DNA of 64,000 nt from Rhodospirillales bacterium. Lineage in GTDB: Bacteria > Pseudomonadota > Alphaproteobacteria > ATCC43930 > CGMCC-115725. The notes under the pieces were generated by a model, which was not told the DNA's origin, made no database searches, and saw only the letters and a program-made list of their open reading frames with translations. Location: NCBI GenBank assembly GCA_027315365.1, contig DAHUYF010000193.1, positions 1-64,000 on the forward strand. The letters are read 5' to 3'. This document shows positions 257 through 58,858 of the stretch, piece after piece. The translations under genes and the position numbers were made by a program. Positions within the stretch are counted from its first letter, which is position 1. Every line of letters starts with the position of its first letter.

Positions 257-724
257 TCAGCGCGCGGACGGCGGCGGAGGTGGGGGTGTTCCCGGGGCGG
301 GCTGATAGCCCGGCACCTGATTGCCGCGGGAATACATGCATTGCGAATAGGCGATGTCGTAGAACTGCTGCGCGGTGTAGGTGCCGCGCTCGGCCTGGCC
401 CGCACCCACCGCCGTGCCGCCGAGCGCGCCGGCGCCGGCGCCGACCGCCGCGCCTTTACCGCCGCCGACCGCAGCGCCGAGACCGGCACCGAGTACCGTC
501 CCGAGCACGGCGGTGCCGAGCTGGCCGGTGCTGCCCTGCTCGGCGACGCCGGCGCTCTGGCGGCGCGCATAGTCGCGGCAGATGACGTCGTCGTCCTGGA
601 AGACGGCGAAGGGCTTGTTCGGCCCCGGCATCACCGCGACCTTCGGCCCCATCGGCTGCGTCGCGCAGCCGCCGAGAAAGACCAGCGCCGCCGCGGCGGC
701 GACCGTCGCTACGACATGGTTCAC
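257..724 (-). CDS. Glycine-zipper lipoprotein
   Basis: This is a 155-residue envelope protein. The N-terminus is a lipoprotein signal with lipobox LGGC (Cys20), so the mature protein should be lipid-anchored. Residues 65-110 form a repetitive Gly/Ala segment ([21 protein letters not shown] type), typical of glycine-zipper/17-kDa-antigen-like proteins that insert in or line membranes. The C-terminus is proline-rich and ends in a run of six prolines. A clear AGGAGG ribosome site lies about 12 nt before the ATG at 724. A FixK/FNR-like box lies about 95 bp upstream (819-832), suggesting oxygen-dependent control. The molecular function is unknown; an envelope-stress or outer-membrane role is inference. 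Confidence 0.8.
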
Positions 725-1104
725 GACAACAACCTCCTCATGGGACCGACGGCTTGGCCGTCGCTTCGCGCGTCAGCGGCGCGTGCGCGCATACTCCCAG
801 CATTGACGCCGTGGGGCGTTGACTTGTATCAATCCGGCGCGCGAACCGTCTGGGCCCCGCGCTCGGCGCAGCGCCGCCCCAGAGGCCAGGCTCATGGCGG
901 CCATCGCCGGGATTTTGGGATTTTCGCTATCGGCTTGCCGCGCATGGCGATCGGGCAGGCGCCGACCGTACCCTCCGCATCGATTACATGCACGTTACCG
1001 TTTCCGGCGGGATCGGGGCGAGCATAACCTCGCGCCGCGTCATGCCGCCAAGCGCCGCCCGCGCCCGATCGTACCCGCGCGACCCCGTCCCGGCCGACGC
1101 CGCG
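725..1104. other. 380-bp intergenic region, no gene seen
   Basis: This gap separates the lipoprotein gene from the 3' end of the cupin gene. I find no convincing coding frame on either strand. The only recognisable element is the FNR/FixK-like dyad at 819-832, with a possible minus-strand -10 element near 790-796. The rest shows no repeat or clear RNA signature. Confidence 0.5.
819..832 (-). promoter_or_regulatory. FNR/FixK-type box (TTGAC-N4-ATCAA)
   Basis: The sequence TTGACTTGTATCAA has nine of ten consensus half-site bases of the FNR/FixK/Anr box TTGAT-N4-ATCAA. It is centred at 825.5. On the minus strand a GAGTAT-like -10 lies about 31 bp downstream (790-796), the geometry expected for a class II activator site at about -41.5. 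The transcript would start near 784 and lead into the lipoprotein gene starting at 724. Binding is inferred from sequence only. Confidence 0.5.
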
Positions 1105-2213: not shown

Positions 2214-2227
2214 TTGATCTCGATCAA
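2214..2227 (+). promoter_or_regulatory. Perfect FNR/FixK box (TTGAT-N4-ATCAA) before the fabI-pta-ack operon
   Basis: TTGATCTCGATCAA matches the FNR/FixK/Anr consensus at all ten half-site bases. The centre is at 2220.5. A TATCGT -10-like hexamer lies at 2254-2259, about 31-36 bp downstream, as in class II activated promoters. The implied start near 2262 leaves a leader of about 64 nt before the GTG at 2326. This is the clearest regulatory site in the window and implies induction of the operon at low oxygen. Confidence 0.75.
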
Positions 2228-2325
2228 CGACGCCGGCGACGCCGGCAAGCGACTATCGTTCGCTCATGCGGATGCGCCCCCGCGGACGGGGTTCGCGTGC
2301 CTGATTTTTCATCCTGGAGGCAGAC

Positions 2326-3087
2326 GTGTCGCTGCACGGCAAGAAGGGTCTGGTCGTCGGCATCGCCAACGAGCACAGCATCGCCTTCGGCTGCGCCGAG
2401 GCATTCCACCGCGCCGGCGCGGCGCTCGCCGTCACCTATCTGAATGAGAAGGCCGCGCCCTATGTCCGCCCGTTGGCCGAGCGGCTCGAGAGCCCGATCG
2501 TCGTGCCCTGCGACGTGCGCGAGGAGGGGCGGCTCGAGGCGGTGTTCGCGCGCATCGCCGAGGAATGGGGCCGGCTCGACTTCCTGCTGCATTCGATCGC
2601 CTATGCGCCGAAGGAGGATCTCCACAGCCGCATCACCGACTGCTCCCAGGCCGGGTTCGCGATGGCGATGGACGTTTCCTGCCATTCCTTCATCCGCATG
2701 GCGCGGCTTGCCGAGCCGCTGATGGCGGACGGCGGATGCCTGCTGACGGTCACCTTCTACGGCTCGGAAAAAGTGGTCGAGGAATACAATCTCATGGGGC
2801 CGGTGAAGGCCGCGCTGGAGAGCGCCGTCCGCTACATGGCGGCCGAGCTCGGACCCAAGCGCATCCGCGTCCACGCGCTCTCGCCGGGGCCGCTCAAGAC
2901 GCGCGCCGCGTCAGGCATCGAGCGCTTCGACGAATTGCTGGAGCGGGCGCGCGTCCGCACGCCCGAGCATCGCCTGGTGAGCATCGAGGATGTCGGCAAT
3001 CTCGCCACGTTTCTGGTCGGCGACGGCGCCGCGGCGCTCACCGGCAATGTCGAATACATCGACGCCGGCTATCACATCGTCGGCTGA
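2326..3087 (+). CDS. fabI: FabI-type enoyl-ACP (acyl carrier protein) reductase
   Basis: This 253-residue NAD(P)H-dependent short-chain reductase is of the FabI family. It has the nucleotide-binding GIANEHSIA segment at residues 12-20. The FabI active-site pattern is present: Tyr145, Tyr154 and Lys161, close to the Y-x9-Y-x6-K of E. coli FabI. It starts with GTG preceded by a GGAGG-like ribosome site. It is the first gene of an FNR/FixK-box-preceded operon with a MaoC-phosphotransacylase, acetate kinase and PhaC-like protein. It may therefore be a specialised paralogue rather than the housekeeping FabI. Its exact substrate (acyl-ACP or acyl-CoA) is not determined by sequence. Confidence 0.85.
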   Translation: MSLHGKKGLVVGIANEHSIAFGCAEAFHRAGAALAVTYLNEKAAPYVRPLAERLESPIVVPCDVREEGRLEAVFARIAEEWGRLDFLLHSIAYAPKEDLHSRITDCSQAGFAMAMDVSCHSFIRMARLAEPLMADGGCLLTVTFYGSEKVVEEYNLMGPVKAALESAVRYMAAELGPKRIRVHALSPGPLKTRAASGIERFDELLERARVRTPEHRLVSIEDVGNLATFLVGDGAAALTGNVEYIDAGYHIVG

Positions 3088-3113
3088 AACGCGGATCGGG
3101 TCGGAGGCGCGGA

Positions 3114-4508
3114 ATGGAGCGGATCGAGAACCGGACGTTCGACGAGATGCAGCCGGGCGACGTGGCGAGCCTCGTCCGCACGCTCACCCCCAAGGACATC
3201 GAGGTGTTCGCCGCCATGTCCGGCGACGTCAATCCCGCCCATGTCGACGCGGAGTTCGCCAAGAGCGACATGTTCCACAAGGTGGTGGCGCACGGCATGT
3301 GGAGCGGCGCGCTGATCTCGACGGTGCTGGGGACCCAGCTCCCGGGGCCGGGCACGATCTATGTCGACCAATCGCTGCATTTCGGCCGTCCGGTCGGGCT
3401 TGGCGACACCATCACCGTCACGGTGACGGTGACCAGGAAGGTCGAGGCCACCCGCCACGTCCTGCTCGATTGCCGGGCGTCGAACCAGCGCGGCGAGGAG
3501 GTGATATCCGGCACGGCGGAGGTCATCGCGCCCGCCGAGAAAATCTCCCGCCCGCGACTCCTCCTGCCGGAGATCGAGCTGCGTCAGAAGGGACACCGCT
3601 ACGAGCGCCTGATCGAGATGACGCGCGGCCTGGAGCCGATCCGCACCGCGGTGGTGCACCCGGTAGATGCTCCCTCGCTGCTCGGCGCGGTCGAGGCGGC
3701 GCATGCCAAGCTGATCGTGCCGATACTGGTCGGGCCGGAACGCAGGATCCGCGCCGCCGCCGAGCAGGCGCAGCTCGACCTCGCGCCCTACGAGCTCGTC
3801 GCCACCGAGCACAGCGATGCCGCGGCGGCGCAGGCGGTGGGCATGGCGCGGGCGGGCAAGGTCGATGCGCTGATGAAGGGCGCGCTTCACACCGACGAGC
3901 TGATGCGCGCGGTGGTCGACCCCGATCACGGGCTGCGCACCGCCCGCCGGATCAGCCATGTCTTCGCGATCGACCTGCCGGGATACCCGCGGCCGCTCTT
4001 CGTCACCGACGCTGCGATCAACATCTACCCGACGCTGGCGGACAAGCACGACATCGTGCAGAACGCGATCGATCTGGCGCATGCCCTCGGCATCGCCCGG
4101 CCGCGCGTGGCGATCCTGTCGGCGGTCGAAACGGTGACCGAGAGCATCCGCTCCACCCTCGACGCCGCCGCGCTCTGCAAGATGGCCGATCGCGGCCAGA
4201 TCACCGGCGGCATCCTCGACGGCCCGCTCGCCTTCGACAACGCGGTCTCCGAAGAGGCAGCCAAGACCAAGGGGATCGTGTCGCCGGTCGCAGGCCGCGC
4301 CGACATCTTCGTCGTGCCCGATCTGGAGGCCGGCAACATGCTGGCCAAGCAGCTCGAATACCTCGCCGAGGCGCAGGTCGCCGGCATCGTGCTCGGCGCG
4401 CGCGTGCCGATCATCCTGACGAGCCGCGCGGACAAGACGCTGGCGCGGCTCGGCTCCTGCGCCATCGCGCTGCTGCTGGCGCGCCACAAGGCGGGAGCAG
4501 CGCCGTGA
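3114..4508 (+). CDS. Bifunctional MaoC-type enoyl-CoA hydratase / phosphate acyltransferase
   Basis: This is a 464-residue fusion. Residues 1-150 are a MaoC hot-dog hydratase domain, with the hydratase signature around FAAMSGDVNPAHVDAEFA (Asp and His) and the VVAHGMW segment. Residues 160-464 form a phosphate acetyl/butyryltransferase domain with the conserved ALMKGALHTDELM and ITGGILDGPLAFDNAVS segments. The expected reactions are hydration of an enoyl-CoA and conversion of an acyl-CoA plus phosphate to acyl-phosphate. The ATG at 3114 opens 27 bp after fabI, and the stop overlaps the GTG of the kinase gene. Fusion and order imply channelling to the next gene. The acyl chain length is open (acetyl, propionyl or butyryl). 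Confidence 0.9.
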   Translation: MERIENRTFDEMQPGDVASLVRTLTPKDIEVFAAMSGDVNPAHVDAEFAKSDMFHKVVAHGMWSGALISTVLGTQLPGPGTIYVDQSLHFGRPVGLGDTITVTVTVTRKVEATRHVLLDCRASNQRGEEVISGTAEVIAPAEKISRPRLLLPEIELRQKGHRYERLIEMTRGLEPIRTAVVHPVDAPSLLGAVEAAHAKLIVPILVGPERRIRAAAEQAQLDLAPYELVATEHSDAAAAQAVGMARAGKVDALMKGALHTDELMRAVVDPDHGLRTARRISHVFAIDLPGYPRPLFVTDAAINIYPTLADKHDIVQNAIDLAHALGIARPRVAILSAVETVTESIRSTLDAAALCKMADRGQITGGILDGPLAFDNAVSEEAAKTKGIVSPVAGRADIFVVPDLEAGNMLAKQLEYLAEAQVAGIVLGARVPIILTSRADKTLARLGSCAIALLLARHKAGAAP

Positions 4509-5749
4509 GCGACGTCATCCTGGTGCTCAACGCCGGCTCCTCGAGCATCAAATTCTCGCTGTTCCCGGCCGAGCGGCTGCCGGCGCGGCACGAGCTGCTG
4601 TGCGACGGCCAATACGAGGGGATCGGCCAACGCCGCGCCGTGCATTTCATCGCCAGAGACGGCGCGGGCGCCGCGCTCGCCGACGAGCATCTGGCGGAGG
4701 GCACCAGCCACGAGGATGCGCTGGCGGCGCTGCTGCGCTGGATCGACGGGCGTTTCCCGCAGCAGCATCTCGTCGCGGCCGGGCATCGCGTGGTCCATGG
4801 CGGAACGCGCTACGCCGAGCCGGTGCGCATCGACGCGGCGGTGGTCGCCGAGCTGCGCCGTCTCGTGCCTCTGGCGCCGCTGCACCAGCCACACCATCTG
4901 GCGGCGATCGCGGCGCTGGCGAGGCTGCATCCGACGTTGCCGCAGATCGCGTGCTTCGATACCTCGTTCCATCACGCACAGCCGGCGGTGGCGACCAGCT
5001 TCGCCCTGCCGCGACGACTGACGCAGGAAGGCGTCCGGCGCTACGGCTTTCACGGCCTCTCTTACGAGTACATCGCCGGCGTTCTCCCCGATGTTCTCGG
5101 CCGGGCGGAAGCGGAAGGCCGCGTCGTCGTGGCGCATCTCGGCGCCGGCGCCAGCCTGTGCGCGATGCGGCGACGCAAGAGCCTCGCCACCACCATGGGC
5201 TTCACCGCGCTCGACGGGCTGCCGATGAGCCGGCGCTGCGGCGCGCTCGATCCCGGCGTGGTGCTCTATCTGATGCAGGAGAAGGGGATGAGCGCCGCGG
5301 CGGTGAGCGACCTGCTCTATCACGAATCCGGACTCTACGGCGTCTCCGGCGTCAGCGACGACATGGCGGCGCTGCTGAAGAGCGCCGATCCTCGTGCGGC
5401 GGAGGCGATCGACCTCTTCGTCTATCGGATTGGGCGCGAGCTGGGCTCGCTGGCGGCGGCGCTGGGCGGGCTCGACGCGCTGGTCTTCACCGCCGGCATC
5501 GGCGAGCACGCCGCGGAGATCCGCCGGCGCGTCTGCGCGGATGCGGCCTGGCTCGGCATCGAGCTCGATCCGACCGCAAACGACAAGGGCGGTCCGTGCA
5601 TCACGCGGCAGGGCGGCAGGGCCTCGGCCTGGGTCATCGCCACCGACGAGGATCTGATGATCGCACGGCATAGCTGGGCGCTGCTGCGCCAACCGGGTGC
5701 CGCCGATCCGGCGATGACGAAGCGAACAGAGAAACAGGAACCATCATGA
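4505..5749 (+). CDS. ackA: Acetate/propionate-family kinase
   Basis: This is a 414-residue ASKHA-fold kinase making acid plus ATP from acyl-phosphate and ADP. It has the N-terminal VLNAGSSSIKFSLF motif, GHRVVHGG, the catalytic-region YGFHGLSYEY, and the C-terminal TAGIGEHAAEIR motif. The phosphate-binding loop reads HLGAGASL, where most acetate kinases have HLGNG, so one usually conserved Asn is Ala. Such a substitution may accompany an altered acyl specificity. The GTG start at 4505 overlaps the upstream stop (GTGA), and the stop overlaps the next ATG, so the genes are almost certainly co-translated. Confidence 0.9.
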   Translation: MSDVILVLNAGSSSIKFSLFPAERLPARHELLCDGQYEGIGQRRAVHFIARDGAGAALADEHLAEGTSHEDALAALLRWIDGRFPQQHLVAAGHRVVHGGTRYAEPVRIDAAVVAELRRLVPLAPLHQPHHLAAIAALARLHPTLPQIACFDTSFHHAQPAVATSFALPRRLTQEGVRRYGFHGLSYEYIAGVLPDVLGRAEAEGRVVVAHLGAGASLCAMRRRKSLATTMGFTALDGLPMSRRCGALDPGVVLYLMQEKGMSAAAVSDLLYHESGLYGVSGVSDDMAALLKSADPRAAEAIDLFVYRIGRELGSLAAALGGLDALVFTAGIGEHAAEIRRRVCADAAWLGIELDPTANDKGGPCITRQGGRASAWVIATDEDLMIARHSWALLRQPGAADPAMTKRTEKQEPS

Positions 5750-6864
5750 CCAAACATCCGGCCGGGAAATCCTCCACGCACTCGACGCTCGGCGTCCCCG
5801 CCTTCTGGCCGATGGCGATGGCGGCGGCGCTGGCCGAGGAAGGCGCGGAGCTTTACGCCAAGAACCTCAAATTCATCGAGGAAGAGATCAAGATCAACGA
5901 AGAGCTGAGACCCCGGCTCGCGACGCGGAACGAGGTGCGGCTCGAGCTACGCACGATGCGGCTGCGCGATTACGGCAAACCCGGCACCGGCATCCCGACC
6001 CTCGTCGATGCGCCCTATGCCGGCCACACCGCGGTGATCGCCGACTATCACCGCGGCCAGAGCCTGGTGGAGACGCTGCTCGCCAGCGGCATCGGCCATG
6101 TGGCGCTCACCGACTGGAAGACGGCGAGCGAGGACATGAAGGATCTCGAGGTCGACAACTACCTTGCCGAGCTCGTCGTCGCGATCGACGATCTCGGCGG
6201 CCGCGTCAACCTGGTCGGGCTGTGCCAGGGCGGCTGGATGGCGGCGATGGTGGCGGCGCGCTTTCCGGCCAAGGTGAACGCGCTGGTGCTCGCCGGCGCG
6301 CCGATCGACACCGATGCCGGCGACGGGCCGATCAAGCGCATGGCGCAGGCCTCGCCGCTCTCCTTCTATCAGGATCTGGTGGCGCTGGGCGGCGGGCTGA
6401 TGCGCGGCAAGTTCATGCTGCAGGGGTGGAAGAACATGCACCCCGAGGAGCATTACATTCAGCAGCACATCGACCTCTACGAGCACATCGACGACCCCAC
6501 CTATCTCGCCAAGGAGGAGACTTTCGAAAGCTGGTACGAAAACCCCCTCGACCTGCCGGGACGCTGGTATCTCCAGGTCATCAAGGAAATCTTCAAGGAG
6601 AACCGGCTCGCCAAGGGCGAATTCGTCGGGCTCGGACGGAAGCTCGATCTCGGCGCCATCGCCTGCCCGGCCTATCTGCTGGCGGGTGCCGCCGACGACA
6701 TCACCACGCCGGAGCAGGTGCTCGACGCCGCGAAATACCTCGGCACGCCCAAGGAGCGCATCGTGCGGGAGACGGTGCCCGGCGGCCATATCGGTCTCTT
6801 CATGGGGGCACGGACGCTGACGGAGCACTGGCCGAAGATCGCCCGCTGGATCGCGGCGCAATAA
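5746..6864 (+). CDS. PhaC-like alpha/beta-hydrolase with Cys nucleophile
   Basis: This 372-residue protein has the alpha/beta-hydrolase fold of poly(3-hydroxyalkanoate) synthases. The nucleophile elbow is GLCQGG with Cys160, not Ser, as in PhaC (G-x-C-x-G). Asp318 in AGAADDITTPEQ and His348 in PGGHIGLF complete a C-D-H triad. The length is close to the short class III PhaC subunit (about 355 residues) rather than class I (about 590). It is the last gene of the low-oxygen operon, with ATGA overlap with ackA. It could polymerise or hydrolyse hydroxyacyl-CoA made by the hydratase; true PHA synthase activity is not shown, and no PhaE or phasin gene is adjacent. Confidence 0.75.
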   Translation: MTKHPAGKSSTHSTLGVPAFWPMAMAAALAEEGAELYAKNLKFIEEEIKINEELRPRLATRNEVRLELRTMRLRDYGKPGTGIPTLVDAPYAGHTAVIADYHRGQSLVETLLASGIGHVALTDWKTASEDMKDLEVDNYLAELVVAIDDLGGRVNLVGLCQGGWMAAMVAARFPAKVNALVLAGAPIDTDAGDGPIKRMAQASPLSFYQDLVALGGGLMRGKFMLQGWKNMHPEEHYIQQHIDLYEHIDDPTYLAKEETFESWYENPLDLPGRWYLQVIKEIFKENRLAKGEFVGLGRKLDLGAIACPAYLLAGAADDITTPEQVLDAAKYLGTPKERIVRETVPGGHIGLFMGARTLTEHWPKIARWIAAQ

Positions 6865-8008: not shown

Positions 8009-8053
8009 GTGGCGGGCGCGTTCTTCACGCGGATAACTCGAGAGGAGGGAGCG

Positions 8054-8260
8054 ATGACGGAAGCAGTTGCACGCGTCACCAAGATTACCGCCGCCTCGAC
8101 CAAGAGCTTCCAGGACGCGGTCGATGCCGGTCTGAAGCGCGCCGCCAAGACGCTGCGCGGCATCACCGGCCTCGAAGTGATCGAGCAGAAGGCGAAGGTG
8201 GCGAACGGCAAGATCGCCGAATACCGCGCCACCGTCGAGATCACCTTCATCCTCGATTAG
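8054..8260 (+). CDS. Dodecin (flavin-binding protein)
   Basis: This 68-residue protein covers the full dodecin fold (one helix over a three-stranded sheet). It shows the typical VTKITAASTKSFQDAVDAGLKRA start and the RGITGLEVIEQKAKV segment. Dodecins assemble as dodecamers that store or buffer flavins. The ATG at 8054 was chosen over an in-frame start 15 codons upstream because GAGGAGGG sits 5-10 bases before it and the family begins here. It lies next to an LLM flavoprotein gene, which fits flavin use only loosely. Confidence 0.93.
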   Translation: MTEAVARVTKITAASTKSFQDAVDAGLKRAAKTLRGITGLEVIEQKAKVANGKIAEYRATVEITFILD

Positions 8261-37115: not shown

Positions 37116-37796
37116 TCAGGCCGCATCGGCGAGCGTCTCGAGCCCGCCGCGATTCTTCAGCAGTACCTCGCTGCTCGCCTGCATCCTGATGACGCCCTGG
37201 CTCTTGAGCTGGCCGAAGATGCGGCTCACCGTCTCGGTGGTGAGACCCAGATGGTCGGCGATGTCGTTGCGCGTCATCGGCAGCGACAGGCGGTCGCCGG
37301 TGCCGGAGCGATCCGCCATCGCCAGCAGGAAGGAAGCGAGCCGCTCGACCGCGTTCTTGCGCCCGAGCAGCAGCATCTGCGACTGCGCCGCGAAGAGATC
37401 GCCGCAGATTCGGTCGAGGAGGCACCTGGCGAGGCGCGGCCGCTGCTGCGCCAATCGGTCGACCGCCGGCCGGGAATAGCGCATCAGCGTGGCATCGCTT
37501 ACCGCCTCCGCGGTGAAGCGATAGGCGTCATCGAGCTCGAGGCCGATGAAATCTCCGGGCAGCAGGAACTCGCCGATATGGCGCCGGCCGTCGGCGAGCA
37601 GCCGGCAGCCGCGCAGCGCGCCGGTCAGAACCTTGAAGCAATGCCGTGCCGCGTCGCCTTCCCGGAAGAGCGCCTGGTCGCGGCGCAAGGCGACGACGGC
37701 GCCGATGCGATCAAGGGCGGCCAACTCGCCACCGTCGATCATGGTAGGCGGCATGGGAAATGAAGTGGCGGGGCTGTGCAGGACGGTGGCAAGCAT
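37116..37796 (-). CDS. Crp/Fnr-family regulator, FixK-like
   Basis: This is a 226-residue protein with an N-terminal cyclic-nucleotide-binding-like domain (FREGDAARHCFKVLTGALRGCRLLADGRR), a long dimer helix and a C-terminal winged helix around LPMTRNDIADHLGLTTETVSRIFGQLKSQGVI. That recognition segment (E-T-V-S-R) predicts the TTGAT-N4-ATCAA target. The N-terminal cysteine cluster that binds the oxygen-sensing 4Fe-4S of FNR is absent, so it should act like FixK, downstream of another oxygen signal. It is the natural candidate for the boxes at 819, 2214 and 56930. It is divergent from transketolase. Confidence 0.88.
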   Translation of the reverse strand: MLATVLHSPATSFPMPPTMIDGGELAALDRIGAVVALRRDQALFREGDAARHCFKVLTGALRGCRLLADGRRHIGEFLLPGDFIGLELDDAYRFTAEAVSDATLMRYSRPAVDRLAQQRPRLARCLLDRICGDLFAAQSQMLLLGRKNAVERLASFLLAMADRSGTGDRLSLPMTRNDIADHLGLTTETVSRIFGQLKSQGVIRMQASSEVLLKNRGGLETLADAA

Positions 37797-56929: not shown

Positions 56930-56943
56930 TTGATTTGCGTCAA
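56930..56943 (+). promoter_or_regulatory. FNR/FixK-type box (TTGAT-N4-GTCAA) before cydPABX
   Basis: TTGATTTGCGTCAA matches nine of ten half-site consensus bases. The centre is 56936.5. A -10-like GATTAGTCT sequence lies at 56962-56970, about 30 bp downstream, so the box would sit near -41.5 relative to a start near 56978. The first gene, cydP, starts at 57097. Cytochrome bd is a classic target of FNR-type activators in low oxygen. Confidence 0.65.
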
Positions 56944-57298: not shown

Positions 57299-58858
57299 AT
57301 GGCTGAACTCGACGTTGTCGAACTGTCCCGCCTGCAATTCGCGCTGACCGCGCTTTACCATTTTCTCTTCGTGCCGCTCACGCTCGGGCTTTCCGTGCTG
57401 CTGGCGGTCATGGAGAGCGTCTATGTCATGACCGGACGCGCCATCTGGCGCGAGATGACGAAGTTCTGGGGCACGCTTTTCGGCATCAACTTCGCCATGG
57501 GGGTCGCCACCGGCATCACCATGGAGTTCCAGTTCGGCACGAACTGGGCCTATTACTCGCATTACGTCGGCGATATCTTCGGCGCGCCGCTCGCCATCGA
57601 GGGCCTTATGGCCTTCTTCCTCGAGGCGACCTTCATCGGCCTGTTCTTCTTCGGCTGGAACCGTCTGAGCAGGCTCGGCCACCTCGTCGTGACCTGGCTG
57701 GTCGCGATCGGCAGCAATCTCTCCGCGCTCTGGATCCTGATCGCCAATGCCTGGATGCAGAACCCCGTCGGCGCGACCTTCAATCCGGCGACCATGCGGA
57801 TGGAAGTCTCTTCCTTCTTCGACGTGCTGTTCAATCCGGTCGCCCAGGCGAAGTTCGTCCACACGGTGAGCGCCGGCTATGTGACGGGCGCCGTCTTCGT
57901 GCTCTCGATCGGCGCCTTCTACCTGCTGCGCGGCCGGCACCGGGAGATCGCCCGGCGCTCGATCACCGTCGCCGCAAGCTTCGGCCTGGCCTCCGCCCTG
58001 TCCGTCGTCGTGCTCGGCGACGAGAGCGGCTACACTGCCGGCCTGAACCAGAAGATGAAGATCGCCGCGATCGAGGCGATGTGGGAAACCGAAACGCCGC
58101 CGGCGGGCTTCACCCTGTTCGGCTTTCCCGACCGCGCGACGGAAACCACGCGGTTCGAAATTCACGTGCCCTGGGTGCTCGGCCTGATCGCGACGCGCTC
58201 GATCGACGAGCCCGTCGAAGGCATCAAGGACCTGGTGGCCACGGCGGAACGACGCATCCGCAACGGCCTGACCGGGTACAAGGATCTCGAACGGCTGCGA
58301 GCCGAACGCGCCCAGGCGGTGCCGCCGGAAATGCAGGAACCGATCCACGACCTCGGCTATGCGCTGCTCTTGAAACGCTGGCGGCCGGATATCGGGAACG
58401 CGACCGACGAGCAGGTGCATCAGGCGGCGCTCAGCACGGTGCCGGATGTCTCGGTGCTGTTCTGGAGCTTCCGCTTCATGGTCGGCCTCGGCTTCTACTT
58501 CATCCTGCTCTTCGCTCTCGCCTTCTATCTGGCGAGCCGGCGCGAATTGGAGCGGCGCTGGTTCCTGCGGCTGGCGCTCTGCAGCCTGCCGCTGCCCTGG
58601 ATCGCCGCCGAACTCGGATGGATCGTCGCCGAATATGGCCGCCAGCCCTGGATCATCGACGGCGTCCTGCCGACTTTCCTCGGCGCGTCGAGTGAGCCCA
58701 TCGGCGACATCTGGTTCAGCCTGATCGGCTTCGTGCTGTTCTACAGCACGCTCGCCGTCATCGACGTCTACCTCTTGGTCAAATATATCGGCCTGGGACC
58801 GAAGCAGCCCGCCGCGCCTGCCAGCAACCGCCTCGCGCCCGCCACCGGCGACGATTGA
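57299..58858 (+). CDS. cydA: Cytochrome bd ubiquinol oxidase subunit I
   Basis: This is a 519-residue subunit of the high-affinity quinol oxidase. The haem ligands are visible as the N-terminal [15 protein letters not shown] His21, FVHTVSAGY and the Met in [10 protein letters not shown]. The quinol loop is of the long (E. coli-like) type, with [26 protein letters not shown] and a long insertion before GRQPWIIDG. It reduces oxygen to water at very low oxygen tension without pumping protons. cydB follows after 10 bp. Confidence 0.97.

What the first reader, a model, noticed from the sequence alone, without database searches (positions are those of the whole stretch)
2214..6864. Low-oxygen acyl-phosphate operon: FNR/FixK box, FabI, MaoC-PTA fusion, acetate kinase, PhaC-like protein
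A perfect TTGAT-N4-ATCAA dyad with a correctly spaced -10 precedes four tightly coupled genes. Together they could reduce enoyl thioesters, hydrate enoyl-CoA, convert acyl-CoA to acyl-phosphate, harvest ATP, and polymerise or release the hydroxyacyl product. The combination suggests a redox-balancing, ATP-yielding acyl overflow route used when oxygen falls, with acid or polyester as the sink. The individual families are known; the combined pathway and its substrate are not obvious. A Cys-nucleophile PhaC-like protein without PhaE and an acetate kinase with a changed phosphate loop point to non-standard substrates.
Basis: partly seen in the sequence, partly recalled or inferred. Interest (0 to 1): 0.75.

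Follow-up and report, generated by a model that had tools for sequence, protein, structure and literature searches.

The report
Low-oxygen acetate-and-ATP operon, known kind
These four genes form a mobile metabolic unit that bacteria probably switch on when oxygen runs short, to get extra ATP by turning acyl-CoA into acid and perhaps to handle polyester building blocks; the unit is real, but close versions of it are already described in Burkholderia and rhizobia.

Summary
In detail: a perfect TTGATCTCGATCAA box (2214-2227) precedes FabI, a MaoC-PTA fusion, AckA and a short PhaC-like protein. Low-oxygen control is well supported. The genome has 60 TTGAYN4RTCAA sites (reversed control: 1), an Fe-S-type FNR and a FixK-type regulator. 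Two same-genus relatives carry the identical box before PTA operons. Of 80 related loci, 22 have an FNR/FixK2-type box within 200 bp upstream (1.6 expected), nearly all at -73 to -95. Burkholderia cenocepacia has box-PTA-AckA-PhaC-like-FabI. The kind is known: phaC/phaJ-pta/ackA/fabI clusters in Burkholderia s.l., the lxa low-oxygen locus, FixK2 targets in Bradyrhizobium, and the PhoB-controlled S. meliloti orf-pta-ack-fabI operon. A correctly spaced -10 is not confirmed. This is the genome's only full PTA and only AckA, so acetyl-CoA to acetate plus ATP is the likeliest core. The PhaC-like protein is a distinct group, neither class III PhaC nor PhaZ. The PTA groups with Burkholderiales/Bradyrhizobium copies rather than its own genus, suggesting horizontal transfer. 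Substrates and expression are untested.

The parts
2214..2227 (.). FNR/FixK-type box TTGATCTCGATCAA (palindrome)
   Evidence: identical box before the PTA operons of two same-genus relatives G001 and G002; 60 vs 1 genome-wide census
2326..3087 (+). FabI-type enoyl-thioester reductase paralogue (PRK07533 group); Tyr and Lys of the Y-x6-K motif kept (EYNLMGPVK)
   Evidence: second FabI elsewhere in the genome at 45% identity
3114..4508 (+). MaoC/PhaJ-type enoyl-CoA hydratase fused to a phosphotransbutyrylase-like phosphate acyltransferase (NF006045)
   Evidence: hydratase motif SGDVNPAH kept
4505..5749 (+). Acetate/propionate family kinase AckA; loop HLGAGAS
   Evidence: only AckA found in the genome
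5746..6864 (+). Short PhaC-like alpha/beta hydrolase with Cys-Asp-His, distinct group

Best explanation
A horizontally spread, oxygen-regulated acyl-phosphate operon. When oxygen falls, an FNR/FixK protein binds the box at 2214-2227 and activates fabI, maoC-pta, ackA and phaC-like as one transcript (inferred). The PTA domain turns acetyl-CoA, and perhaps C3-C4 acyl-CoA, into acyl-phosphate, and AckA turns this into acid plus ATP; it is the only full PTA and the only AckA found in the genome (shown by search; substrate inferred). FabI and the MaoC domain act on enoyl thioesters as side branches: reduction consumes NAD(P)H, hydration gives 3-hydroxyacyl-CoA (inferred from family). The PhaC-like Cys hydrolase acts on hydroxyacyl-CoA or its oligomers, but probably not as the main PHB synthase, since the genome has PhaC_N genes elsewhere (inferred). 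Net effect: substrate-level ATP and disposal of acyl-CoA and reducing power during oxygen limitation.
For: Box census 60 vs 1. FNR with Cys 23/26/34/122 on contig C3 and a FixK-type regulator in the window. Another box lies before cydA in the window. Identical box before PTA operons in G001 and G002. 22 of 80 loci have an FNR/FixK2-type box within 200 bp, 1.6 expected, reversed control 0. B. cenocepacia has box-PTA-AckA-PhaC-like-FabI. In G014 the PhaC-like gene sits with cydAB, CBS and FixK/FixL-like genes. Single PTA and AckA in the genome. Experimental parallels in other bacteria: lxa locus genes, B. diazoefficiens FixK2 targets phaC2 and an acetate kinase, PhaC2 protein up in microoxia.
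Against: 58 of 80 loci lack a box within 200 bp, including the Rhodopseudomonas operons that begin with FabI. The S. meliloti orf-pta-ack-fabI operon is PhoB-controlled. The window's -10 is weak and displaced. No expression, growth or enzyme data exist for this organism. A TetR gene (1560-2120) just upstream could be a regulator. Kinase loop changes could alter activity or substrate.
Confidence: 0.66

Rival explanations
1. Polyester branch: the operon moves carbon between 3-hydroxybutyryl-CoA and PHB or free 3-hydroxybutyrate. The PTB-like domain and AckA would interconvert 3-hydroxyacyl-CoA, its acyl-phosphate and the free acid with ATP, and the PhaC-like protein would polymerise or release hydroxyacyl units; a natural counterpart of the engineered kinase-phosphotransbutyrylase-PHA synthase route.
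For: The transferase domain scores far better as phosphate butyryltransferase (TIGR02706, 313 bits) than as Pta (TIGR00651, 74 bits), and its best solved relative is a phosphate butyryltransferase. PhaC or PhaC-like genes recur beside PTA-AckA in two distinct subfamilies. The engineered route exists.
Against: The kinase is of the acetate/propionate family, not butyrate kinase. TIGR02706 stays below its cut-off (410). The PhaC-like protein is outside class I and III PhaC. A possible orthologue, B. diazoefficiens PhaC2, is reported as not required for PHB polymerisation. The genome has PhaC_N genes elsewhere.
Confidence: 0.17
2. Acetate scavenging or acetyl-phosphate signalling rather than fermentation: AckA-PTA run towards acetyl-CoA, feeding PHA synthesis, or set the acetyl-phosphate level for response regulators.
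For: PMC8231600 proposes acetate storage as PHA for these clusters; PMC10888616 notes acetyl-phosphate as a phosphodonor in microaerobic Bradyrhizobium.
Against: Control by a low-oxygen box fits ATP harvest better than acetate uptake, which costs ATP (inference); no direct test.
Confidence: 0.1
3. The box does not govern the operon, which is controlled by the upstream TetR protein or another signal such as phosphate.
For: TetR gene 1560-2120 on the same strand, 93 bp before the box; the S. meliloti version is PhoB-regulated; many homologous operons lack the box.
Against: Identical box in the same genus, positional conservation in 22 loci, 60-vs-1 census.
Confidence: 0.07

Closest known systems
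phaC / phaJ-pta / ackA / fabI clusters of Burkholderia sensu lato (groups D1 and D2, PMC8231600)
   Same: Same gene set: PhaJ-Pta fusion, AckA, FabI and a PhaC-type protein
   Different: The PhaC-type protein here is a short group outside class I and III; gene order differs; no FNR/FixK control is described in the passages read
Burkholderia low-oxygen-activated (lxa) locus, BCAM0275A-BCAM0323
   Same: Contains acetate kinase, phosphate acetyl/butyryl transferase and poly(3-hydroxyalkanoate) polymerase genes; three CRP-type or cyclic-nucleotide-binding proteins are named as putative regulators
   Different: lxa is a cluster of about 50 genes with universal stress proteins; here the operon stands apart, and an island more like lxa lies on contig C61
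Sinorhizobium meliloti orf-pta-ack-fabI operon (Summers et al. 1999, as cited in PMC8231600)
   Same: Co-transcribed pta, ack and fabI
   Different: Controlled by PhoB and phosphate starvation; its first ORF is not a clear PhaC (2-24% identity to the Burkholderia proteins)
Bradyrhizobium diazoefficiens FixK2 targets phaC2 (bll6073) and bll2518-bll2517
   Same: FixK2 box at -81 before phaC2, adjacent to CBS-domain gene blr6074; acetate kinase bll2517 in a FixK2-box operon; a CBS gene also adjoins the PhaC-like gene in G001 and G014
   Different: There phaC2 is a separate unit and the kinase partners a phosphoketolase; sequence orthology with the window protein was not tested

Membership tests
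FNR/FixK regulon member | TTGA-N6-TCAA type palindrome upstream | tested here: met
FNR/FixK regulon member | Site conserved in orthologous operons | tested here: met
   Same genus and 22 of 80 loci, but absent in Rhodopseudomonas and most others
FNR/FixK regulon member | Class II spacing to a -10 (hexamer 23-28 nt after the box) | tested here: inconclusive
   Window's best hexamer starts at 27, about half of the relatives at 22-24; -10 elements in GC-rich genomes are weak and other activation classes exist
FNR/FixK regulon member | FNR/FixK-dependent induction at low oxygen | not testable with these tools
   No expression data for this organism
phaC/phaJ-pta/ackA/fabI cluster | PhaJ-Pta fusion, AckA, FabI and a PhaC-type protein together | tested here: met
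phaC/phaJ-pta/ackA/fabI cluster | True PHA synthase in the cluster | tested here: inconclusive
   PhaC-like protein below all PHA synthase cut-offs but with a PhaC-type GLCQGG elbow and Asp/His
Class III PHA synthase subunit PhaC | TIGR01836 above its cut-off | tested here: not met
   124 of 365 bits
Class III PHA synthase subunit PhaC | PhaE partner | tested here: inconclusive
   No PF09712 match in the genome, but control genomes also silent; no PhaE gene in the operon
Burkholderia lxa locus | Embedded in a stress-protein island with universal stress proteins | tested here: not met
   The genes tested next to the operon are cupin, TetR and an MDR oxidoreductase; the wider window was not fully annotated
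Acetate kinase | Family model above cut-off and conserved motifs | tested here: met
   TIGR00016 347 vs 293 bits; NAGSSS, GHRVVHGG and the Arg of MSRRCG kept, loop Asn changed to Ala
Phosphate butyryltransferase | TIGR02706 above cut-off | tested here: not met
   313 of 410 bits; the family match is NF006045, well above its own cut-off

The most novel reading that the evidence does not exclude
A natural, oxygen-controlled energy-conserving route in which stored or nascent hydroxyacyl units are released through the PhaC-like protein, carried as 3-hydroxyacyl-CoA, and converted by the PTB-like domain and the altered kinase to 3-hydroxyacid plus ATP, so that PHB serves as a fermentable ATP reserve during oxygen loss.
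Probability: 0.1. Interest if true: 0.65.

Novelty: new member of a known kind. Interest (0 to 1): 0.35.

Why it matters
The comparative data link a described but enzymatically open gene set (phaC/phaJ-pta/ackA/fabI) to FNR/FixK-type control in Alpha- and Betaproteobacteria, and give a small operon in which to ask how respiring bacteria make ATP when oxygen disappears. The PhaC-like group, also found next to cydAB and FixK/FixL-like genes and in Burkholderia, has no assigned activity that I found and is worth a biochemical test.

Tried and rejected
AlphaFold2 model of the PhaC-like protein from three sequences: mean pLDDT 34, unusable, so no fold search was run. Strict TTGAYN4RTCAA in 350 bp upstream found only 5 of 80 loci; the published, broader FixK2 consensus gave 22 of 80 within 200 bp; the broader pattern was chosen after the strict one had been seen, so the enrichment should be read against its reversed control (0) and background (1.6). 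'The kinase loop marks a new substrate' rejected as an inference: Ala/Ser is a clade feature and Asn occurs in the G001 orthologue. 'One linear enoyl pathway' rejected: the MaoC domain is missing from the PTA gene of G001, G002 and B. cenocepacia, and its motif is broken in 8 of 82 matches. Sass 2013 and Mesa 2008 are not held in the library. A tree placing the PhaC-like group on the PhaZ side is flagged as possible long-branch attraction. The simple gene caller misplaced the FabI start and some overlapping ORFs, so operon genes were taken from the ORF list and homology, not from it.

Full report
WHAT IS THERE. The coordinates and genes are as described. The box TTGATCTCGATCAA (2214-2227) is the only perfect TTGATN4ATCAA in the window. 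The genes are FabI 2326-3087, MaoC-PTA 3114-4508, AckA 4505-5749 and PhaC-like 5746-6864, with gaps of 26, -4 and -4 bp. The first three hit named NCBIfam groups above a cut-off: NF005717, NF006045 (764 bits, 'bifunctional enoyl-CoA hydratase/phosphate acetyltransferase') and TIGR00016. The PhaC-like protein is below every PHA cut-off, but carries GLCQGG (C160), D317/D318 and H348.

IS THE BOX REAL. The host genome (4.97 Mb) has 60 TTGAYN4RTCAA sites; the same pattern read backwards occurs once. Several sites lie before genes expected of a low-oxygen regulon: cydA in the window (356 bp before the gene), a hydrogenase maturation protease, and BON, CBS and LonB-type genes on contig C61, which holds many of the listed sites. 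The genome encodes an FNR with an N-terminal C-x2-C-x7-C and a central Cys and a FixK-type protein without that cluster, inside the window at 37116-37796. Chance is therefore an unlikely explanation.

CONSERVATION. The two same-genus relatives G001 and G002 carry the identical box in front of their PTA operons: box-PTA-AckA-CBS-PhaC-like in G001, box-Zn-ADH-like-PTA in G002. Among 80 loci found with the MaoC-PTA protein, a FixK2-consensus box (TTG[AC]N6[TG]CAA, taken from PMC9104804) lies within 200 bp upstream of the first operon gene in 22, against 1.6 expected from the loci's own background and 0 for the reversed pattern; nearly all lie at -73 to -95. Related MAG sequences in this set inflate the number of independent cases. 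About half of these relatives also have a -10-like hexamer (such as TAGATT or TAAATT) 23-28 nt after the box, the class II arrangement; the window's own hexamer is displaced. B. cenocepacia CMCC(B)23006 has the same enzymes in another order, PTA-AckA-PhaC-like-FabI, with a box 80 bp before PTA and no MaoC part found. Rhodopseudomonas operons with FabI first lack a detectable box, so this regulation is not universal.

ENZYMES. The MaoC motif D-x-N-P-x-H is kept here and in 74 of 82 matches, but lost in L003, L013, L014, L016 and others, and the domain is missing from the PTA gene of G001, G002 and B. cenocepacia. Hydration is thus dispensable to the operon, which argues against one obligate pathway. 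The transferase domain resembles phosphate butyryltransferases more than Pta. The kinase is of the acetate/propionate type. Its loop Asn (HLGNGAS) is Ala here and Ala, Ser, Gly or His in the nearest clade, Asn in most others; by alignment to the M. thermophila enzyme the Pro of its FTPLEG segment is Ala here. These changes might alter the substrate pocket, which is inference. There is one full PTA and one AckA in the genome, a second FabI and two clear PhaC_N genes elsewhere.

THE PHAC-LIKE PROTEIN. It groups with Bradyrhizobium, same-family and Burkholderia proteins (65-80% identity) and is at 22-29% to class I and III PhaC and to PhaZ; support for the group as one clade is moderate (69/86). 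Its elbow is PhaC-type (G-x-C-x-G-G), not PhaZ-type (V-C-Q-P). In G014 it follows cydAB and a CBS gene and lies next to FixK-, response-regulator- and FixL-like genes. In B. diazoefficiens phaC2 (bll6073) is a validated FixK2 target adjacent to a CBS-domain gene and among the top microoxia-induced proteins, while PhaC1 is the only paralogue required for polymerisation. Orthology of the two is suggested by context, not tested. Class I PhaC genes occur beside MaoC-PTA-AckA in ten other loci, so a PhaC-type protein in this operon is a repeated theme.

ORIGIN. In a PTA-domain tree the window's sequence sits with Burkholderiales, Bradyrhizobium and Rhodopseudomonas copies (97/90), apart from the copies of its own genus and family, which points to horizontal acquisition. 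Plasmid copies of both the MaoC-PTA and the PhaC-like genes occur.

WHAT IS KNOWN. PMC8231600 describes phaC/phaJ-pta/ackA/fabI clusters and relates them to the PhoB-controlled S. meliloti operon. The lxa locus holds ackA, pta and phaC genes. In NGR234 bacteroids pta and ackA rise more than 100-fold. The B. cenocepacia cyd operon has a predicted Anr site with exactly the window's sequence. The operon is therefore a new member of a known kind; the widespread FNR/FixK-type box in front of it and the separate PhaC-like group are the parts I did not find described in the papers read.

CONCLUSION. Low-oxygen control: strongly supported by sequence, not shown experimentally. Acid plus ATP from acyl-CoA: likely. 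Exact substrates and the role of the PhaC-like protein: open.

Noticed in passing
window 37116-37796 (-): FixK-type CRP/FNR regulator without the N-terminal Cys cluster, on the same contig as the operon; may be its activator.
   Followed up: partly
window 56930-56943 and 57299-58858: Box TTGATTTGCGTCAA 356 bp before a cytochrome bd oxidase subunit I gene.
   Followed up: partly
window 819-832 and 257-724 (-): Box TTGACTTGTATCAA 95 bp upstream of a predicted glycine-rich lipoprotein-like gene.
   Followed up: no
L135-L137 (own genome contig C61): An island dense in FNR/FixK boxes (over about 50 kb) with BON, CBS, LonB-type and DUF3775 genes and a PhaC_N gene; resembles the Burkholderia lxa locus.
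   Followed up: partly
L052:11022-13937 and 23 other loci: A large ribonucleotide reductase (barrel domain) gene lies a few kb downstream of MaoC-PTA-AckA in 24 of the loci, a repeated neighbourhood mostly in Rhodocyclaceae-type MAGs.
   Followed up: no
L133:10362-11366 and L134:8882-9892: A CBS-domain-like gene directly precedes the PhaC-like gene in two relatives, as CBS gene blr6074 adjoins phaC2 in B. diazoefficiens.
   Followed up: partly
L179 and L180 (B. vietnamiensis and P. aromaticivorans plasmids): The PhaC-like gene sits near a Tn3-type transposase in a stress-type island with FtsH, polyphosphate kinase, YHS and heavy-metal ATPase genes.
   Followed up: no
window 8009-8260: Small ORF that looks like a dodecin (by eye, not tested).
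   Followed up: no
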